From positions 62,001 to 126,000 of the forward strand of contig NZ_CP011930.1 in assembly GCF_001040945.1 (NCBI RefSeq): DNA of 64,000 bases. Reading direction: 5' to 3'. The notes beneath the pieces were generated by a model. The model did no database searches and was not told the DNA's origin. It saw only the letters and a list, made by a program, of their open reading frames with translations. Each line of letters opens with the position of its first letter. The stretch's first letter is position 1. Source of the DNA: Herbaspirillum seropedicae (GTDB taxonomy: Bacteria; Pseudomonadota; Gammaproteobacteria; Burkholderiales; Burkholderiaceae_D). This document shows positions 25,887 to 35,504 of this stretch, piece by piece. Made by a program: the position numbers and the translations under genes.

Positions 25887-27893
25887 ATGCAAAACGACAA
25901 CCAAGCCGGCCTGCCGGAACTGACCCTGCGCGGCATGCTGCTGGGAGCCCTGATCACGGTGGTCTTCACGGCCTCCAACGTCTATCTCGGGCTCAAGGTC
26001 GGCCTGACCTTTTCCTCGGCCATTCCGGCGGCGGTGATCTCGATGGCGGTCTTGCGCCTCTTCGCCAACGCCAACATCCTCGAAAACAACATGGTGCAGA
26101 CCCAGGCCTCGGCGGCCGGGACGCTGTCCTCGGTGATCTTCATCCTGCCGGGCCTCTTGATGATGGGCCACTGGCAAGGCTTCCCCTTCCTGCAGACCCT
26201 GGGCATCTGCGCCGCGGGCGGCATGCTGGGGGTGATGTTCTCCATCCCGCTGCGCCGGGTGATGGTGGTGCAGGGCGAGCTGCCCTATCCGGAAGGGGTG
26301 GCGGCTGCCGAGATCCTGCGTGTGGGCAGCGCCGACGCCGACGGCGGTGAAGAGAGCCGCCGTGGCCTGCGCGACATCCTCTTCGGCGGCGCCCTGGCGG
26401 CAGGCTTCAGCGTGGCCGCCAGCGGCCTGAAGGTGTTTGCCGAGAGCATGAGCCTGTGGTTCGCCGCAGGCGCCTCGGCGGTGCGCCTGACCATGGGATT
26501 TTCGCTGGCGCTGGTGGGCGCGGGCTACATGATCGGCATCGTCTCCGGCATCGCCATCCTGATCGGGCTGGTGCTGGCCTGGGGCGTGGCCGTGCCTTAC
26601 CTGACCGCGGTCACGCCCCATGCGGCCGACGTCAGCCTGGCCGATTTCGCCAACGGTCTGTGGAAAAGCCAGGTGCGCTTCATCGGCGCGGGCATGATCG
26701 GCGTGGCCGCGATCTGGACCCTGGCCACGCTGTTCGGCCCCATGGTGCAGGGCGTGAAGGCTTCGCTGTCCACGCTGGCGCGCCGCCAGCAGGGCAGCAC
26801 CGAGCGCACCGACCAGGACATGTCGCCGCGCTGGATCGTGATCATCAGCCTGGCCATGATCGGCCTCTTGGCAGTGGTGTTCGCCTCCTTCCTGGCGGGA
26901 GCGCCGGTGTCGCCGGCGCTCTTTGCCGGGCTGGTGGTCTATGCGGTGGTGTTTGCCTTCGTGTTCGGCTTCCTGGTGGCGGCCGCCTGCGGCTACATGG
27001 CCGGCCTGATCGGCTCGTCCTCCAGCCCGATCTCGGGCATCGGCATCGTCGCGGTGATCCTGGTGTCGTTGCTGCTGCTGGCCTCGGGCATGGTCGATAC
27101 GCTGCTGGCCACGCCCGAGGGCGGCAAGCTGGCCATCGCCATCGCCCTGTTCGTGACCGCCGCCATCATCGCCGTGGCCGCCATCGCCAACGACAACCTG
27201 CAAGACCTCAAGACCGGCCAACTGGTCGGCGCCACGCCCTGGCGTCAGCAGGTCGCCTTGCTGGTGGGTTGCGTGGTGGGCGCGCTGGTGATCCCGCCGG
27301 TGCTGACCCTGTTGTATAACGCCTATGGCTTCACCGGTGCGCTGCCGCGCGCCGGCATGGACGCGGCCCAGGCCCTGGCCGCGCCGCAGGCCACCCTGAT
27401 GACGGCCATCGCCACCGGCATCTTCACCCGCGAACTGAACTGGACCATGCTCACCGTGGGCGTGGGGCTGGGCATCTTGCTGATCGTCATCGACTGGCTG
27501 CTGGCGCGGCGCGGCGGGGTGGCGCGCCTGCCGGTGCTGGCGGTGGGGATCGGCATCTATCTGCCGCCGGTGGTCAGTAGCGCGCTGTTTGTGGGGGCGC
27601 TGCTGGGCTGGTTCATCGAGCGTGCGCTGCGTCGCCGCGCGCTGGCCGCCGGCGCCAATGTCGAAGCCTATGCCGACAAGCCGCGCCAGCGCGGCATCCT
27701 GGTGGCGTCGGGCCTGATCGTGGGCGAGAGCCTGGTGGGCGTGGTGCTGGCCGGGGTGATCGGCTTTACCGGCAAGGATGCGCCGCTGGCGCTGGTGTCG
27801 GGCAGCTTCGAGTCCATCGGTCAGTGGCTGGGGCTGGCCGCCTTTGCACTGATCCTGCTGGCGTTTGCGCGCCGGATCATGCCGGCGCGCTGA
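25887..27893 (+). CDS. OPT-family oligopeptide transporter
   Basis: A 668-residue inner-membrane protein with about sixteen helices. The N-terminal LTLRGMLLGALITVVFTASN and the loop GSSSSPISGIGI are typical of bacterial OPT proteins. The family imports peptides or metal chelates; bacterial members are poorly characterised, so the substrate is unknown. The ATG at 25887 has only a weak ribosome-binding site. It stands alone, convergent with the phospholipid cluster. Confidence 0.88.
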   Translation: MQNDNQAGLPELTLRGMLLGALITVVFTASNVYLGLKVGLTFSSAIPAAVISMAVLRLFANANILENNMVQTQASAAGTLSSVIFILPGLLMMGHWQGFPFLQTLGICAAGGMLGVMFSIPLRRVMVVQGELPYPEGVAAAEILRVGSADADGGEESRRGLRDILFGGALAAGFSVAASGLKVFAESMSLWFAAGASAVRLTMGFSLALVGAGYMIGIVSGIAILIGLVLAWGVAVPYLTAVTPHAADVSLADFANGLWKSQVRFIGAGMIGVAAIWTLATLFGPMVQGVKASLSTLARRQQGSTERTDQDMSPRWIVIISLAMIGLLAVVFASFLAGAPVSPALFAGLVVYAVVFAFVFGFLVAAACGYMAGLIGSSSSPISGIGIVAVILVSLLLLASGMVDTLLATPEGGKLAIAIALFVTAAIIAVAAIANDNLQDLKTGQLVGATPWRQQVALLVGCVVGALVIPPVLTLLYNAYGFTGALPRAGMDAAQALAAPQATLMTAIATGIFTRELNWTMLTVGVGLGILLIVIDWLLARRGGVARLPVLAVGIGIYLPPVVSSALFVGALLGWFIERALRRRALAAGANVEAYADKPRQRGILVASGLIVGESLVGVVLAGVIGFTGKDAPLALVSGSFESIGQWLGLAAFALILLAFARRIMPAR

Positions 27894-27910: not shown

Positions 27911-27933
27911 AGCCTGGCCCGCCGGGCCGGGCT
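27911..27933. terminator. Hairpin between convergent genes
   Basis: AGCCTGGCCC and GGGCCGGGCT form a 10-bp stem, with one G-U pair on the plus-strand RNA, around a GCC loop. No T-tract follows, so termination efficiency is uncertain. Confidence 0.4.
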
Positions 27934-28895
27934 CAGGGGACCCACCAATAGCGCAGGATGTGGAAGAAGATGGGCGCGGAAAAGCTGATCGAGTCGACCC
28001 GGTCCAGCATGCCGCCGTGGCCTTCGATCATCGCGCCCCAGTCCTTGAGCCCGCGATCACGCTTGATCGCGGACAGCACGAATCCCCCGAAGAATCCCAG
28101 GATGTTGATGGTCAACGCCACCAGCGCCGCCTGCCAGACATTGAAGGGAGTGATCCAGTAGAGCGCCGCGCCTACCGCGGTAGAGGTCAGCACGCCCCCC
28201 ACCAGCCCCTCCAGCGTCTTGGACGGGGAGATCTGCGGCGCCAGCTTGCGCTTGCCGAACAGCTTGCCCCAGACATACTGGAACACGTCGCTGGACTGCA
28301 CCGTGAGCACCAGGAACACGATCAATTGCAGGTTGCGCCCCTCGAAGCCGGGGATGGCCAGGGTCAGCAGGGCCGGCACATGCGAGATGCAGTACACGCA
28401 GATCATCAAGCCCCATTGCACCTTGGCCGCGCGCTCCAGGAAGTGCTTGGTATCGGCCGATAGCGAGGCCGAGATCGGCAGCAACAGGAAGGCATAGACC
28501 GGGATGAGGATGGAGAAGAGGCCATACCAGTCCATCCCGATGAGCACATATTGCAGCGGCAGGAAGACGAAGAAGCACCAGAGCAGCGCGCGATGGTCGC
28601 CCACGCGGGTATAGGTCACCGAGATGAACTCGCGCAGCGCCTGCAGCGAAATGAAGGCGAACAGCACCACCACGCCGGTCTTGCCCATCCAGAACGCCAG
28701 CGCCAGCGCGCCTATCATCCACCACCAGGCCTTGATGCGGGCATTGAGGTTGTCGACGACGCTGCTGTTGCGTCCGGCCAGACGCCAGCGCAGCAGGCCG
28801 CCGACCGAGCTGGCCAGCGCGAGGACGGCGAACACGCCGGCAAAGAGGGCGATGAGGGTATCTTGGGCAGTCATGGTCGATCCGTGCGGGTTCAT
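27933..28895 (-). CDS. cdsA: Phosphatidate cytidylyltransferase (CdsA family)
   Basis: A 320-residue inner-membrane enzyme with about eight helices. The C-terminal CdsA signature AIKRDRGLKDWGAMIEGHGG followed by MLDRVDS is intact, so it should convert phosphatidate and CTP to CDP-diacylglycerol. The ATG at 28895 overlaps the acyltransferase stop (ATGA); an internal ATG at 28874 (MTAQDTLIALF) is an alternative. It is the last gene of a five-gene lipid cluster and is probably an additional copy, because the housekeeping cdsA normally sits beside dxr and uppS. Confidence 0.9.
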   Translation of the reverse strand: MNPHGSTMTAQDTLIALFAGVFAVLALASSVGGLLRWRLAGRNSSVVDNLNARIKAWWWMIGALALAFWMGKTGVVVLFAFISLQALREFISVTYTRVGDHRALLWCFFVFLPLQYVLIGMDWYGLFSILIPVYAFLLLPISASLSADTKHFLERAAKVQWGLMICVYCISHVPALLTLAIPGFEGRNLQLIVFLVLTVQSSDVFQYVWGKLFGKRKLAPQISPSKTLEGLVGGVLTSTAVGAALYWITPFNVWQAALVALTINILGFFGGFVLSAIKRDRGLKDWGAMIEGHGGMLDRVDSISFSAPIFFHILRYWWVP

Positions 28896-29512
28896 TCGGC
28901 GATGGGCGCCAGCTCGAGCAGCGCCTGGCGGGTGCGCGCCAGGAATTGCTCCTTGCTTTCGCCGGCTTGCAGCATCAGGGGTTCGCCGAAGCTCAAGGTA
29001 CACAGCAGGGGCAGCGGCACCAGATGGCCCTTGGGCATGGCGCGGCCCAGGTTTTCTATCCACACCGGCACCAGCTCCACCTCGGGATGGGCGCAGGCCA
29101 GGTGATACAGGCCGCTCTTGAACGGCAGCAGGCCATCGTCTAGGTTGCGGGTGCCTTCGGGAAAGAGGATCAGCGACTCTCCCCCCGCCAGCACCTGGCC
29201 CATCACGCCGATGGGGTCGGCGCTGCGCCCGGCCTGGCGGTCCACCAGCACGCCCCGGAACACCCGGTTGATGACATAGCGACGCAGCGCGCCCTTGAGC
29301 CAGTAGTCGGCGCCGGCCACCGGCCGGGTGCGCTTGCGCATGGCCCGTGGCAGCATGCTCCAGACCAGCACGAAATCGCCGTGGCTGCGGTGGTTGGGGT
29401 AGTACACGCGCAGCTTGTCCGGATCCGGTGCGGCAAACCAGCGGGCGCGCACGCCGGTGAGGACACGGGCGAACGTGCAGATGGCGGAAGCGAAGAGACG
29501 GTCGATCAGCAT
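28892..29512 (-). CDS. 1-acyl-glycerol-3-phosphate acyltransferase (PlsC family)
   Basis: A 206-residue acyltransferase. The catalytic HX4D motif is NHRSHGDFVL and the substrate-binding motif is ILFPEGTRNL. It should transfer an acyl chain to lysophosphatidate or a related lysolipid at the cytoplasmic face of the inner membrane. The start at 29512 (MLIDRLFASAI) gives a normal N-terminus with one amphipathic segment. It overlaps cdsA by four bases and follows the phosphatase fusion by 19 bp, supplying phosphatidate for the next step. Confidence 0.88.
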   Translation of the reverse strand: MLIDRLFASAICTFARVLTGVRARWFAAPDPDKLRVYYPNHRSHGDFVLVWSMLPRAMRKRTRPVAGADYWLKGALRRYVINRVFRGVLVDRQAGRSADPIGVMGQVLAGGESLILFPEGTRNLDDGLLPFKSGLYHLACAHPEVELVPVWIENLGRAMPKGHLVPLPLLCTLSFGEPLMLQAGESKEQFLARTRQALLELAPIAE

Positions 29513-29531
29513 AGAAGTCGGCAATCCAGGA

Positions 29532-31448
29532 TCAGAAGATAAACAGCACGCCCAATGCACCCAGCCAGCCGCCGATCTGTCCTGCCAGGCAGCGGCATTG
29601 GTACCTCAACAGCCGGCGCGCCCCTGCGGTACGGTCAGCCAGGGGGCGGGTAGGCGTGGGTTGGTGGCCCAGGCCGCTCTCTCTGATAGCCACGTCAAAG
29701 GCGGCCAGATCGTCCGGCGGCAGGATGCCCTGCTCCCAGCGGCGCGCCCAGGAGGCGAAAAGCGGAGCATCGAAGGCGCAGCGCAGGGCAAAGACGTATT
29801 CGGCGATGCCGAACACGATGGATAGCGTCAGTGGTATCCAGAGCGATGGCGCTTCTGGCTGCACAGCCAGCAGGATCAGCACCACCAGGGCGGCGATGGT
29901 GAGCATCCGGCTGGTGGCGTCCAGGGGACGGCTCAGACCCAGCAGCGCGGCGGTGATCTCAGCCTGATGGGCAGCCTGGTAGGCGGCTTTCCGTGCGGCT
30001 TGTGGGTCTTCATGGGGGATATCGTGACCGGCGGCGTCATTGGCAGCATCGCCACCGGGGCCCTGGCGCAGCTCGGGCATGGGATTCTCCTTGAGCAGGC
30101 GTTGCTCCACCTCCAGCAGGCGTTCGCGCAGCGCATCGTTGATGACCACGGCGGGCCGGCGCTCAGCCAGCAGGGCCAGGGCGCCAGCCATGTCGGGGCA
30201 GCGTCGGCTCAGGCACAGCCAGGCGGCCACCGCCCCGGCGCTGCGCGAATAGCCCAGGGCGCAGGCCACCAGCACCGGTCCATGGCCGCGCAGGGATTCG
30301 ATGCTGCGCGCAGCGGCCAGCAATTGATCGGCCTCGGGGGCGACCAGGTCCAGCCAGGGATGGCTGGCGTAGCGCCAGTGGCCGCGCGGGGCGGGCAATT
30401 CAGCGCTGAGGTCGCACAGGGCGGCAAAGCGGCCCGCGCTCATCCCGGCCTTGCCCGGCAGCGGGCCCAGCCAGACGTCATCCGTGATGGCGTCGGGTTG
30501 CGGATGGCGGCGCGTCCACAAGCGGGCATTGATCCAGGCACCCAATGCATGCGGCGCCAGCAGCCAGGCGGCGGCCAGCGAGCGACGGCCGTCGCGCTTC
30601 TGGAAACCGGCGGTGCCGGCATAGGCATAGTTCCACGCCACGATGGCCAGCGCCAGGGCCGACCAGCCCAGCAGCGCGGCCAGCGGGCGTACACCGTAGG
30701 CCAGTCCCAGCGCCACTGCCGCGCCCAGGCCATAGGCCAGCGCCAGGCGCGTGCGGCGCGAGCTGCCTTGGCCGTCGCGTTGCAGCGGCGTGCGGCCTTC
30801 GTCCGGCCACAGCCACAGGCAGAACAGGCCCAGCATGGCGCCGGTGGGAATGTCGATGAAGTGATGTTGCCAGGTGGTCAGCACCGACAGGCCGATCAGC
30901 AGCGCCCAGCCATGGATCAGCCAGCGCCAGGGCCAGCTTGCGCGCAACCGGGCGAACTGGACCCAGATTAGCACCAGCAGCGCGATATGCAGAGAAGGGG
31001 CCTGGTTGTACGGCAGGTCGAAGGCCGTCAGTGAGGCGAAGAGCGCGCCGAAGAGACCGTCGGTGGCCGGGCGCTCGAAGGCAAAGCGCAGCGGGAACGC
31101 CAAAAAGCAGGCCACCGCGATCACCTGCGTGGTCAGCAGCCGCAGCGCGTGACGATCGGTCTCGCGGGCCGTGCGGCAGCACAGGAAGGAAAAACCGTAG
31201 AGCAGGTCGATGGACCAGTAGGGCAGGATGGTCCAGGGCAGGAAGGGGATGTGGCGCTCCCAGCCATAGAAGAAGCTGGGCACGCTGGCGCGCGCGGCTG
31301 CGGCATGGTTGGCAAAGCCATAGCTGAGGAAGAACAGTGGCCCCAGCAGCAGGAGCCAGGCCACGCCCCGCTTCCAGGGCAGCGGCGTGGAGGGTGCGGC
31401 TGGTGCGGCCGGTGCGACGGTCGCCGACAGGTGCTCGGCCTGGCTCAT
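29532..31448 (-). CDS. PAP2 / dual-specificity phosphatase fusion protein
   Basis: A 638-residue membrane protein with two catalytic modules. Residues about 30-280 form a PAP2-like multi-helix domain with PSLH (151-154) and HHFID (195-199), closer to the AUR1/inositolphosphotransferase branch than to classical PgpB. Residues about 320-440 form a dual-specificity phosphatase domain with general acid Asp367, catalytic Cys396 and Arg402 (CX5R in CALGYSRSAG). Two or more further helices follow after residue 525. The start at 31448 overlaps the preceding stop (ATGA). A phosphatidylglycerophosphate-type dephosphorylation like that of PTPMT1 is plausible; the substrate is unproven. Confidence 0.82.
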   Translation of the reverse strand: MSQAEHLSATVAPAAPAAPSTPLPWKRGVAWLLLLGPLFFLSYGFANHAAAARASVPSFFYGWERHIPFLPWTILPYWSIDLLYGFSFLCCRTARETDRHALRLLTTQVIAVACFLAFPLRFAFERPATDGLFGALFASLTAFDLPYNQAPSLHIALLVLIWVQFARLRASWPWRWLIHGWALLIGLSVLTTWQHHFIDIPTGAMLGLFCLWLWPDEGRTPLQRDGQGSSRRTRLALAYGLGAAVALGLAYGVRPLAALLGWSALALAIVAWNYAYAGTAGFQKRDGRRSLAAAWLLAPHALGAWINARLWTRRHPQPDAITDDVWLGPLPGKAGMSAGRFAALCDLSAELPAPRGHWRYASHPWLDLVAPEADQLLAAARSIESLRGHGPVLVACALGYSRSAGAVAAWLCLSRRCPDMAGALALLAERRPAVVINDALRERLLEVEQRLLKENPMPELRQGPGGDAANDAAGHDIPHEDPQAARKAAYQAAHQAEITAALLGLSRPLDATSRMLTIAALVVLILLAVQPEAPSLWIPLTLSIVFGIAEYVFALRCAFDAPLFASWARRWEQGILPPDDLAAFDVAIRESGLGHQPTPTRPLADRTAGARRLLRYQCRCLAGQIGGWLGALGVLFIF

Positions 31449-33196
31449 GAGACCTTGCGCCGGGCCAGCGAGACCGTGAAGATGCCCCACTGGTCGATGC
31501 GCTGTTCGATCTTCTCGAAGCCGGCCTCGGCCACCAGCTGGTCCATCTCGGCCTGGGTGCGGCGGCGCATGACCCAGGCCTGGCCGCCGCGATGGCTGGT
31601 GAGGGCGCGGGCGATCATTTCCAGCTGCGGATGCCAGGGCTGGCCGGTGTAGATCAGGTAGCCGCCCGGCGCAATCGCATCGGCCATGCCGGCCAGCGAG
31701 GTGGCCACGGCGTCGTTGTCGGGGAAGAGTTCATACAGGCCCGAGACGATGCCCACCGTCGGGCGCGGCGTCACAGCCGCCAGGCTGGCGCGGTCGAAGG
31801 CGTCGCCCTGGACGAAGCGGGCGATCTCGCCCAGCCCCTTTTCGGCGATCAGGGCGCTGCCCTGGCGCACGTTGAGCTCGCTGTAGTCGCGCAGCAGGAT
31901 GGACTCGGGCCGGGGGCCGCTCTCCAGGGCTTCGAGCACGTAGCGGCCGTGGCCGGCCGCGATGTCGAGCACCCGCAGCGGCTGGCCTTCGGCTTGCAGG
32001 CGCGCCAGCGCCAGGCGCAGCAATTGCTCGATATGCAGCTTGCGCTGGCGGATCCCCTTCCAGCCGATGGCGTCGAGATATTGGCGATCGATGGCGCGCC
32101 CCAGCGGCCCTGCGCCTTCGGGACGATTGCGGTAGACATAGTCCAGCGTGCTGCCCGAGTCGAAGCCGGTACGGTGTCCCAGCGCCACCCCCGCCGAGAG
32201 CAGGCCGCCCAGCTTGAGGTTGGCGCGATAGCCGGCCCAGTACAAGCCCTTGGGGCTCAAGGCCGGCAGCGGTGCGGCCAGCGCCTGGGCTTCATCGAAG
32301 GTAGGGCCGTGGCGGTGCGCCTGGCGCAGGTCCGGGCGCGACCAGGGCTGGGCGAACTGGCGCAGGATGAATTCGCGAGCGAGGTCGGTGGCGATCTGGC
32401 GGTCTTTTTCGCCGAAGGTGTCATGGTAGAAGCCGGGCAGCACGTGCTTTTCCTTGGTCGTCGTTCCCAGGCGGTCGAAGAAGTCGTGCTGGGGACCGTG
32501 ATGCACCACCCAGTCCGCGCCGGAAATGAGCAACTGGGTCGGGATGGTGATGGCCTGGGCATCGGCCACCACCCGCTCGGCCGCCTCATACAGCGCCAGC
32601 AGGATGTTCACCGAGATCGGCCGGCTGATCAGCGGGTCGCTGTCGTAGGACGCCTGGCGCGCCGGATCGTGGGTGAGGTACTTGGCCTTGACGTAGCTGT
32701 TGACGAAGAAATTGCCGCGCAGCTTCTGTTGCAGGGCCAGGCCGGGTCGGGCGAAGGGGACGTAGAGCTTGACCTTGAAGGCCGGCGAGGCCAGCACCAG
32801 GCAGCGTACGCGCGGCGCGTAGTCATGCGCCCAGGTCGACACCAGCACCGCGCCCACGCTTTGCGCCAGCACCGCCAGGTCTTCCTCGGCCAGTTGCCAT
32901 TGCTGGCGCAGGTGGCCGATGAAGGTCTGCACGTCGCGCACGGAATCGGCAAAGCTGGGCGAATACCCGCGTGGCCCCGGTGAGCGGCCGTGGCCGCGCG
33001 CATCCCAGGCGTAGAAATCGAAGTCGGGCAGATCGAGTTCATCGACCAGATGGGCCATGCGGCCCCCATGCTCGTGGCCGCGATGGAACATCACGACGGC
33101 GCCGCGCCGCTCGGTGGCGGTGGCGGGCCAGCGGCGATAGAACAGGGTCTGGTCGTCGTGGGTGGTGAACTGGTGTTCCTGGACAGGTCGGTTCAT
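31445..33196 (-). CDS. Alpha/beta hydrolase fused to SAM-dependent methyltransferase
   Basis: A 583-residue two-domain protein. Residues about 1-285 form a lysophospholipase/monoacylglycerol-lipase-like hydrolase: nucleophile Ser113 in the elbow AQSVG, Asp228 in ISGADWVV and His258 in GFYHDTFG make a complete triad. Residues about 385-583 form a class I methyltransferase with motif I DIAAGHGRY (411-419). No signal peptide is present, so it acts in the cytoplasm. It overlaps both neighbours by four bases. It could deacylate and methylate a lipid or its headgroup; substrate unknown. Confidence 0.82.
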   Translation of the reverse strand: MNRPVQEHQFTTHDDQTLFYRRWPATATERRGAVVMFHRGHEHGGRMAHLVDELDLPDFDFYAWDARGHGRSPGPRGYSPSFADSVRDVQTFIGHLRQQWQLAEEDLAVLAQSVGAVLVSTWAHDYAPRVRCLVLASPAFKVKLYVPFARPGLALQQKLRGNFFVNSYVKAKYLTHDPARQASYDSDPLISRPISVNILLALYEAAERVVADAQAITIPTQLLISGADWVVHHGPQHDFFDRLGTTTKEKHVLPGFYHDTFGEKDRQIATDLAREFILRQFAQPWSRPDLRQAHRHGPTFDEAQALAAPLPALSPKGLYWAGYRANLKLGGLLSAGVALGHRTGFDSGSTLDYVYRNRPEGAGPLGRAIDRQYLDAIGWKGIRQRKLHIEQLLRLALARLQAEGQPLRVLDIAAGHGRYVLEALESGPRPESILLRDYSELNVRQGSALIAEKGLGEIARFVQGDAFDRASLAAVTPRPTVGIVSGLYELFPDNDAVATSLAGMADAIAPGGYLIYTGQPWHPQLEMIARALTSHRGGQAWVMRRRTQAEMDQLVAEAGFEKIEQRIDQWGIFTVSLARRKVS

Positions 33197-33807
33197 GGGC
33201 GAGGGAGCGCGGCCAGGCCGCTGCGGATACGGTTGACGATATTGAGGAGGATGGCCACTGCCGCCAGCGGCAGCGCCCAGAAGATCCAGTCCGGCAGCGC
33301 ACCGGCCAGGCCCAGCCAGAGGCCCAGCGCGCCGAACAGGAAGGCGCGGTCACTCTTGCCCATGGGGCCGTCGTACTGGCGCGGCGCGCCTACCATCGGG
33401 CCGAGCGCGCCGGTCATCTCGGAGACGGCCGACAGGAAGATCAGCGCGCCCACGCTGCCCCAGCCGAACGGAGCCACCAGGGCAAAGGGCAGGTACAGCG
33501 CAGCGTCGGAGAAGACATCGGTCAGTTCATTGAGGTAGGCCCCCAGCGCCGATTGCTGGCCGAATTCGCGCGCCAGCATGCCATCCACGGCATTGAAGGC
33601 CATGCGCAGGAACATCCACAGCGGCAGCAGCAGGAACAGCGCCGGCCGCGACGCCCCTTCCAGCCACAACAGCGCGCCCAGCCCCAGCGAGACCAGCATG
33701 GTCAGCACGGTGACGGCATTGGCGGTCACGCCCGCGCCGGCCAGGGCGGCCACCATGGGCCGCAGCAGCGCCTGGAAGCGCGGTTTGAGTTGATAGATGC
33801 TGATCAT
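33193..33807 (-). CDS. Divergent CDP-alcohol phosphatidyltransferase
   Basis: A 204-residue membrane protein with about six helices. The CDP-alcohol phosphotransferase signature is recognisable (DGMLAREF, Gly89, Asp97), but two of its four Asp positions are Asn: Asn72 replaces the first and Asn93 the third. Asp75 and the proposed catalytic base Asp97 are kept, and another Asp follows at 101. It should join CDP-diacylglycerol to an alcohol headgroup. The start at 33807 (MISIYQLKPRFQ) was chosen as the conserved N-terminus; the frame upstream is noise. It is the first gene of the lipid cluster. Confidence 0.85.
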   Translation of the reverse strand: MISIYQLKPRFQALLRPMVAALAGAGVTANAVTVLTMLVSLGLGALLWLEGASRPALFLLLPLWMFLRMAFNAVDGMLAREFGQQSALGAYLNELTDVFSDAALYLPFALVAPFGWGSVGALIFLSAVSEMTGALGPMVGAPRQYDGPMGKSDRAFLFGALGLWLGLAGALPDWIFWALPLAAVAILLNIVNRIRSGLAALPRP

Positions 33808-33980: not shown

Positions 33981-35504
33981 TTACTCCATGGATAGACCGC
34001 GGCGGTACTGGATGGCTTCGGCCACGTGCTGCCGGTCGATCTGTTCGGCGGCGGCCAGGTCGGCCATGGTGCGCGCCAGCTTGAGCACGCGGTGATAGGC
34101 GCGCGCCGACCAGCCCAGCCTGAGCATGGCGGTCTGCAGCAGTTGCGCAGCATCGGGGCCGGGCTGGCAATGACGGTCGATTTCCGCGCCGGCAAGGGCG
34201 CTGTTGGGTTTGCCCTGGCGGCTGATCTGGCGCTCGAAGGCCACGGCCACGCGGGCGGCGATGCGGGCGGTGGATTCGCCGCTGGCCTGGACGGCCAGTT
34301 CGCCGGGGCTCAGGGCGGCGACCTGCAATTGCATGTCGATGCGGTCCAGCAGGGGCCCTGACAGGCGCTGCTGATAGCGCCGCACCATCTCGGGTGAACA
34401 ACGGCACTGCCCGCTGGCTTGGCCATGGTAGCCGCAGGGGCAGGGATTCATCGCCGCCAGCAGCTGGAAGCGCGCCGGGAAATCCGCCTGGCGGGCCGCC
34501 CGCGAGATGGTGATCTGTCCGGATTCCATGGGCTGGCGCAGCACCTCCAGCACGCTGCGCCGGTATTCGGCGATTTCATCGAGGAACAGCACCCCATGAT
34601 GGGCCAGCGAGATCTCGCCGGGCCGGGGCGGGCTGCCACCGCCCACCAGTGCGACCGCCGAGGCGGTGTGGTGGGGCGCGCGGAAGGGGCGTTGTCGCCA
34701 GCGCGCGGGGTCGAAGCCGCCGGTGAGGGAGCGCACCGCCGCCGATTCCAGCGCTTCCGCCTCGGTCATCGGCGGCAGGATGCCCGGAAAGCGCGTGGCC
34801 AGCATTGACTTGCCCGCTCCGGGCGGCCCCACCAGCAGCATGCTGTGCCGTCCCGCCGCCGCCACTTCCATGGCGCGGCGCGCCAGCAATTGCCCCTTGA
34901 TCTCGCTGAAATCGGGATACACCGGTGCGAGGGCGTCCTGTTGCGGCCGGTGGCGCGCCAACCGGGTGCTCTCGTCGCGGCTGGTGAAGTGGGCGCAGAC
35001 CTCCAGCAGCGAACGGGCCGGGACGATCTCGGCTTGCGTCACCAGCGCGGCCTCGTCGGCATTGGCGGCGGGCAGGATGAAGGCGCGCCGCCGTTCGTCG
35101 GCGCTGGCGCCGTGCTGCATGGCGCAGGTCATCGCCAGGGCGCCGCGGATGGGCAACAACTGGCCGGAGAGGGATAGCTCGCCGGCGTATTCGTAGTCGT
35201 CCAGCCGGTCGCCGGGGATCTGCTGGGAGGCGGCCAGGATGCCCAGGGCGATGGCCAGGTCGAAGCGGCCGGATTCCTTGGGGAGGTCGGCAGGCGCGAG
35301 GTTGACGGTGATGCGCCGCGCCGGGAATTCAAAGCGGGCGTTCTGCAATGCCGCCCGGACGCGGTCACGGGCTTCCTTCACCTCGGCCTCGGGCAGGCCG
35401 ACGATGGCGAAGGAGGGCAGGCCATTGGCCAGATGCACCTCCACCGTGACCGGTGGGGCGTTCATGCCGGCCAGGGCGCGGCTGCGCAGGACCGCCAGGC
35501 TCAT
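33981..35504 (-). CDS. comM: YifB/ComM-family Mg-chelatase-like AAA+ ATPase
   Basis: A 507-residue ComM homologue. The N-terminal Lon-protease-like fold (NGLPSFAIVGLPEAEVKEAR) precedes the AAA+ core with Walker A GPPGAGKSM and the C-terminal Mg_chelatase_C region (GWSARAYHRVLKLARTMADL). A cysteine cluster (MNPCPCGYHG...CRC) is typical. In naturally competent bacteria ComM is a hexameric helicase that helps branch migration during transformation, but it is conserved in non-competent species too. It is separate from the lipid cluster, 173 bp upstream of it. Confidence 0.92.
   Translation of the reverse strand: MSLAVLRSRALAGMNAPPVTVEVHLANGLPSFAIVGLPEAEVKEARDRVRAALQNARFEFPARRITVNLAPADLPKESGRFDLAIALGILAASQQIPGDRLDDYEYAGELSLSGQLLPIRGALAMTCAMQHGASADERRRAFILPAANADEAALVTQAEIVPARSLLEVCAHFTSRDESTRLARHRPQQDALAPVYPDFSEIKGQLLARRAMEVAAAGRHSMLLVGPPGAGKSMLATRFPGILPPMTEAEALESAAVRSLTGGFDPARWRQRPFRAPHHTASAVALVGGGSPPRPGEISLAHHGVLFLDEIAEYRRSVLEVLRQPMESGQITISRAARQADFPARFQLLAAMNPCPCGYHGQASGQCRCSPEMVRRYQQRLSGPLLDRIDMQLQVAALSPGELAVQASGESTARIAARVAVAFERQISRQGKPNSALAGAEIDRHCQPGPDAAQLLQTAMLRLGWSARAYHRVLKLARTMADLAAAEQIDRQHVAEAIQYRRGLSME

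What the first reader, a model, noticed from the sequence alone, without database searches (positions are those of the whole stretch)
27933..33807. Compact five-gene phospholipid synthesis/remodelling unit with unknown product
Seen: five minus-strand genes whose starts and stops overlap by ATGA at three of four junctions (the fourth gap is 19 bp). They encode a CDP-alcohol phosphatidyltransferase, a hydrolase-methyltransferase fusion, a PAP2-phosphatase fusion, a PlsC acyltransferase and a CdsA. Known: PlsC makes phosphatidate, CdsA makes CDP-diacylglycerol, CDP-alcohol transferases attach a headgroup, and PTPMT1-type phosphatases remove a headgroup phosphate. Inference: the cluster is a complete second headgroup pathway, perhaps making a methylated or stress-specific lipid, with a deacylating hydrolase for turnover. 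The product cannot be named from sequence.
Basis: partly seen in the sequence, partly recalled or inferred. Interest (0 to 1): 0.72.

Follow-up and report, generated by a model that had tools for sequence, protein, structure and literature searches.

The report
ynbABCD-type lipid operon, six parts
This is a Herbaspirillum version of the uncharacterised E. coli ynbABCD membrane-lipid gene cluster, with two extra parts, and its central enzyme carries asparagine at two of the four positions where its enzyme family normally has aspartates, so it may make a lipid nobody has yet identified.

Summary
In detail: five minus-strand genes, three ATGA overlaps and one 19-bp gap. It is not a new cluster: E. 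coli K-12 ynbA, B, C and D are 41-60% identical homologues. The order A-C-D-F-E-B holds in 83 of 102 loci. In a 398-genome phylum sample, C is in 27 genomes, all with A; F is in 26, all among those 27. The genome has another CdsA, two further CDP-alcohol transferases and five further PlsC-type genes, so this is not the sole housekeeping set. The transferase is closest to phosphatidylinositol-phosphate synthases and keeps their two phosphate-binding arginines, but metal ligands D1 and D3 are Asn in 95 of 96 loci. No inositol-1-phosphate synthase was found, and E. coli YnbD is published not to replace PGP phosphatases. Best reading: a dedicated phosphatidyl-X-phosphate pathway (E, B, A) with a tailoring module (C, D, F). 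Product, methylation and stress role are unproven.

The parts
33193..33807 (-). A (YnbA-like): CDP-alcohol phosphatidyltransferase of PIP-synthase type
33517..33594 (-). variant active-site motif N72-x2-D75-G-x2-A-R...G-x3-N93-x3-D97 (D1 and D3 are Asn)
   Evidence: 95 of 96 loci for each Asn, 0 of 96 canonical; aligned to PIPS D1/D3
33346..33348 (-). R154 codon, aligned to M. tuberculosis PIPS R155 (acceptor phosphate)
   Evidence: HMM alignment; GKSDR in 96 of 96 loci; role from PMC4634129 passages
33229..33231 (-). R193 codon, aligned to M. tuberculosis PIPS R195
   Evidence: R193 in 97 of 97 rows, (E. coli counted twice there)
31445..33196 (-). C (YnbC-like): alpha/beta hydrolase (about 32402-33112) fused to Methyltransf_20 (about 31457-32377)
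   Evidence: Pfam PF12146, PF12147; 60% identical to E. coli YnbC; nucleophile motif 102 of 102 loci; His motif 35 and SAM motif I 97 of 102 with strict patterns, 100 and 101 of 102 with looser ones
30810..31376 (-). D, first part: PAP2-type membrane domain with PSLH and QHHxxD motifs
   Evidence: both motifs 94 of 94 loci; at E<=0.1 PAP2_3 matched by 25 of 25 members, PAP2 by 23 of 25; for the window itself PAP2 scores higher
30084..30503 (-). D, second part: dual-specificity/PTPMT1-like Cys phosphatase domain (CALGYSRS)
29532..30080 (-). F: conserved putative membrane protein of ~147 aa in relatives, fused to D here
   Evidence: profile hits in 90 of 102 loci; 2-3 hydrophobic segments in 80 of 81 sequences; no Pfam family shared by members; fusion by one base less than in L007/L008; also fused in H. 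seropedicae
28892..29512 (-). E: PlsC-type acyltransferase
   Evidence: Pfam PF01553; H-x4-D-type and PEGTR motifs in 87 of 87 loci
27933..28895 (-). B (YnbB-like): CdsA paralogue
   Evidence: Pfam PF01148; 41% identical to E. coli YnbB; CDS signature 90 of 90 loci

Best explanation
A dedicated phospholipid pathway of the ynbABCD kind. E acylates a lysophosphatidate-like acceptor; B activates the resulting phosphatidate as CDP-diacylglycerol; A transfers the phosphatidyl group to a phosphorylated alcohol X-P held by R154 and R193, giving phosphatidyl-X-phosphate; the Cys-phosphatase domain of D removes the headgroup phosphate. C (hydrolase plus methyltransferase), the PAP2 domain of D and F are a tailoring module that remodels the lipid. 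X is probably neither inositol nor simply glycerol. Because E. coli YnbB supplies bulk synthesis poorly, B probably hands CDP-DAG directly to A. Shown here: gene content, order, co-occurrence, active-site residues, predicted fold of A and of the phosphatase part of D. Inferred: every substrate, the order of steps, the hand-over from B to A.
Confidence: 0.5

Rival explanations
1. The cluster serves MPIase-type glycolipid synthesis: B makes GlcNAc-PP-diacylglycerol, and the other genes support or recycle it.
For: E. coli YnbB overproduction raises MPIase (PMC6362211 passages) and restores it in CdsA-depleted cells without restoring phospholipid (PMC7018664 passages). B-E pairs occur without A.
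Against: ynbB deletion leaves MPIase unchanged. It gives no role to A, C, D, E or F, which are tied to each other. It does not explain why 47 of 48 A genomes carry B.
Confidence: 0.15
2. It is an auxiliary phosphatidylglycerol route: A uses glycerol-3-phosphate, D is a PGP phosphatase.
For: A has weak similarity to pgsA models (14 of 34 members) and keeps phosphate-binding Arg. PTPMT1, a mitochondrial PGP phosphatase (recalled), is among D's structural neighbours.
Confidence: 0.12
3. A is a catalytically impaired transferase that senses or holds CDP-DAG or regulates B, not a synthase.
For: Two of four signature Asp are Asn, and these positions coordinate the metals in M. tuberculosis PgsA1 (PMC6506517 passages).
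Against: D2, D4, A and R of AR, R154 and R193 are each conserved in 96 or 97 of 97 rows. E-B-A trios exist without C, D or F. Asn can ligate metals (recalled).
Confidence: 0.1
4. The pathway makes phosphatidylinositol from inositol phosphate.
For: Best sequence, profile and fold matches are PIP and archaetidylinositol-phosphate synthases.
Against: No inositol-1-phosphate synthase domain in the genome, nor in the E. coli control, while 6 of 14 control genomes show one. S132 and K135 of PIPS are not kept (my reading). The window scores far below the NCBIfam cut-offs (59.5 against 180, 39.3 against 170).
Confidence: 0.06
5. A is a Kennedy-type enzyme that moves a phospho-alcohol from a CDP-alcohol to diacylglycerol.
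Against: PIP synthases match better in both searches. The cluster encodes a CDP-DAG synthase paralogue. EcoCyc removed the reaction because E. coli has no phosphatidylcholine.
Confidence: 0.05

Closest known systems
E. coli K-12 ynbABCD (b1408-b1411)
   Same: All four proteins are homologues: A 46%, B 41%, C 60%, D 41% identity. Same domain fusions in C and D.
   Different: Order A-B-C-D instead of A-C-D-F-E-B. No PlsC-type gene and no F in the 13-kb region read. Function of YnbD 'yet to be established' in 2020 (PMC7413402 passage).
Bacterial phosphatidylinositol-phosphate synthases (PIPS; M. tuberculosis PgsA1, R. salmoninarum PIPS)
   Different: D1 and D3 are Asn; S132 and K135 align with Gly; no inositol-1-phosphate synthase in the genome.
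PTPMT1 and DSP-type Cys phosphatases
   Same: Fold and CX5R motif in the C-terminal part of D.
   Different: Fused behind a PAP2-type membrane domain; the usual HCX5R (recalled) is ACX5R in the window.
Housekeeping CdsA
   Same: C-terminal half and CDS signature.
   Different: The N-terminal halves of YnbB and CdsA are not homologous, and E. coli YnbB does not complement a cdsA deletion (passages). The other CdsA-type gene of the genome (L002) matched B only at 36% over about 114 residues.

Membership tests
ynbABCD-type operon | homologues of YnbA, YnbB, YnbC and YnbD encoded together | tested here: met
   order differs from E. coli
CDP-alcohol phosphotransferase family | signature D1xxD2G1xxAR...G2xxxD3xxxD4, described as absolutely conserved (PMC4634129 passage) | tested here: not met
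   D1 and D3 are Asn in 95 of 96 loci, canonical in 0 of 96
CDP-alcohol phosphotransferase family | fold and Pfam PF01066 | tested here: met
Phosphatidylinositol-phosphate synthase | two acceptor-phosphate Arg (RsPIPS R153, R191) | tested here: met
   aligned R154 and R193
Phosphatidylinositol-phosphate synthase | inositol-side residues S132 and K135 | tested here: not met
   both align with Gly (my reading of the alignment)
Phosphatidylinositol-phosphate synthase | NCBIfam equivalog cut-off | tested here: not met
   window 39.3 against 170 bits; cut-off comparison of the other members not shown by the call
Phosphatidylinositol-phosphate synthase | makes PIP from CDP-DAG and inositol phosphate | not testable with these tools
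   needs an enzyme assay
Dual-specificity / PTPMT1-like phosphatase | CX5R loop and DSP fold | tested here: met
PAP2 superfamily | Pfam gathering cut-off 27.2 bits | tested here: inconclusive
   24.1, 26.9 and 28.8 bits in three searches; fold of this part not tested by structure
CDP-diacylglycerol synthase | CDS signature KRxxxxKD...HGGxxDR | tested here: met
   90 of 90 loci
PGP phosphatase | replaces PgpA/B/C in vivo | not tested
   published for E. coli YnbD only: does not complement (PMC7413402 passages)

The most novel reading that the evidence does not exclude
E-B plus a CDP-alcohol transferase with an Asn-modified metal site (N-x2-DG...G-x3-N-x3-D) is a separate branch of phospholipid synthesis. 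It has two transferase subfamilies, A (with the Arg of AR) and A' (a hydrophobic residue instead of that Arg). Both carry Asn at D1 and D3, and both usually sit beside the same CdsA-paralogue/PlsC pair. B passes CDP-DAG directly to A in a complex, and C, D and F turn the product into a lipid class not yet described in proteobacteria, E. coli included.
Probability: 0.3. Interest if true: 0.75.

Novelty: new variant of a known kind. Interest (0 to 1): 0.5.

Why it matters
E. coli K-12 itself carries four genes of this pathway, and none of the passages I opened names a demonstrated product (searches; 13 papers opened, passages only, not all of them from those searches). A conserved branch with its own acyltransferase, CDP-DAG synthase and transferase would mean that the textbook phospholipid list of proteobacteria is incomplete. 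The double Asn, in a family whose Asp signature is called absolutely conserved, gives a specific mechanistic question. The E-B-A trio and the C-D-F module say which genes to express together, so the question is directly testable.

Tried and rejected
PI synthesis was considered from the PIPS similarity and set aside for lack of an inositol-1-phosphate synthase and of the inositol-side residues. A sole-copy housekeeping role was rejected because paralogues exist. Spread on plasmids: no hit for a 1-kb D/F stretch, not followed. The viral fold library gave no match at E<=0.001 for A; its best rows were giant-virus CDP-alcohol transferases. A PDB search for the PAP2 part gave only weak phospholipid-phosphatase matches, E 0.04. 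The 50 VIA-align rows shown for D cover almost only the phosphatase part, so the PAP2 fold was not tested by structure. Literature on a Herbaspirillum lipid or a similar operon: one search found no paper; the listings gave nothing on this operon.

Corrections: my D translation was out of frame, so its D column is void; redone. One search listed some spurious ORFs as F; replaced by the profile search. One search counted E. coli twice; one search does not. An attempt to align D and F rows together misplaced F and was dropped. One search leaves out 3 of 99 A, 3 of 97 D and 3 of 90 E predictions outside length limits. In one search, two chance motif matches in other frames (L175, L185) were set aside.

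Full report
WHAT IS THERE. The window lies at 62001-126000 of a 5.51-Mb single-contig genome. The nearest named relatives of this cluster are Herbaspirillum: loci L006-L008 at 91% identity for C, and H. seropedicae for the fused D-F protein at 99% over residues 440-638.

IT IS THE YNB OPERON. E. coli K-12 MG1655 has ynbA, ynbB, ynbC and ynbD in a row. The window proteins match them: A 46% over 201 aa, C 60% over 576, D 41% over 437, B 41% over 302. E. coli has no PlsC-type gene there. In one probably enterobacterial genome (L164), ynbA and ynbB homologues are followed by E at the same place beside azoR and hrpA homologues (89% and 96% identical), with no ynbC or ynbD match. So parts are exchanged at one site.

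A SIXTH PART. The third gene is 638 aa here. In most relatives the D frame ends about 60 residues after the phosphatase Cys, and a separate gene of ~147 aa follows. I call it F. A profile finds F in 90 of 102 loci. The set is the window, 80 loci chosen as the closest relatives of C out of 486 confirmed, E. coli, and 20 of the 27 genomes with Methyltransf_20 in a 398-genome sample of the phylum. Many of the 80 are Variovorax, so the counts are not independent. The order A-C-D-F-E-B occurs in 83 of 102 loci; 19 differ or are cut by contig ends. Among 35 F members, 16 Pfam families were each hit by one member only (best E 0.0022). F has 2-3 hydrophobic segments in 80 of 81 sequences. Compared with L007 and L008, the window has one base less at the D/F junction, which puts D and F in one frame. 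The fusion is also in H. seropedicae (cluster of 18 member sequences) and in one other 625-aa protein, so it is probably real.

CO-OCCURRENCE. In 398 genomes, Methyltransf_20 (C) is in 27, from 10 families. All 27 have strong A (E below 1e-45); 10 more have strong A without C. F is in 26, all among the 27; G296 has C without F. Fisher tests give 6e-40 for C-F and 6e-34 for C-A, without correction for kinship. In G204, D and F lie together about 41 kb from A-C-E-B, so they persist even when dispersed. B (CdsA paralogue, E<=1e-50) is in 69 genomes; 47 of the 48 genomes with any A hit have it, and 22 B genomes show no A hit. I fetched B loci of 18 of those 22: 8 have a divergent CDP-OH-P gene nearby, 10 show none within 12 kb. 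E lies beside B in all 20 B loci fetched, which include two genomes with A. Exceptions elsewhere: E. coli has B without E, and in G110 A and B are both cut short with no E found. Eight loci (L162-L169) hold E, B and A without C, D or F. The cluster is therefore modular: E-B pair; E-B-A trio; and the trio plus C-D-F.

THE CDS PARALOGUE. E. coli YnbB makes CDP-DAG in vitro but does not support bulk phospholipid synthesis. Its overproduction raises MPIase; its deletion has no such defect (PMC6362211 passages; PMC7018664 passages; Sato 2019, cited there with 'dedicated to' MPIase in its title, was not read). Its genetic neighbourhood suggests another reading: its CDP-DAG is handed to A. The stand-alone E-B pairs are evidence against making this its only role.

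REGULATION AND PHENOTYPES IN PRINT. All from passages: ynbA is reported to be activated by BglJ-RcsB (PMC12871917), appears in a c-di-GMP transposon screen (PMC13031359) and in a radionuclide response (PMC10134817); ynbB came up in an ECA-PG transposon screen but was not needed for ECA-PG synthesis (PMC8609368); ynbC carries a substitution and is up in an E. coli persistence study (PMC13313352). None names a demonstrated product.

VERDICT. What is new here, as far as my searches show, is the sixth part with its close co-occurrence, the modular build, and the conserved double Asn of the transferase.

Noticed in passing
L176-L182, L185, L194; L173-L175: A divergent CDP-alcohol transferase subfamily, mostly near E-B pairs (L174 has none nearby), has Asn at D1 and D3 and a hydrophobic residue instead of the Arg of AR.
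   Followed up: partly
L166:10036-10719, L167:858-1397, L182:6310-6942: A small VTT/DedA-like membrane protein lies next to the E-B-A genes (VTT E 1.6e-6 in L167, below cut-off; no Pfam hit in L166; L166 and L182 judged by eye).
   Followed up: partly
window 30080-30110: The D/F fusion arises from one base less than in two Herbaspirillum relatives; also fused in H. seropedicae.
   Followed up: yes
L164 (unnamed, probably enterobacterial genome): At the azoR/hrpA site of E. coli ynbABCD, this genome has ynbA, ynbB and a PlsC-type gene but no ynbC or ynbD match.
   Followed up: partly
L170:7743-8333: A lone A-like gene with Ala at D1 and no E or B nearby: perhaps a decaying or repurposed copy.
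   Followed up: no
L132: About 2.2 kb of extra sequence lies between C and D in an otherwise six-part cluster.
   Followed up: no
L183, L187 and L189, E genes: In some stand-alone E-B pairs the acyltransferase motif reads PEGGR or PEGNR instead of PEGTR (by eye).
   Followed up: no
window 25887-27893 and 33981-35504: The operon is flanked by an oligopeptide-transporter-like gene (convergent) and a ComM-like gene upstream on the same strand; names by eye.
   Followed up: no
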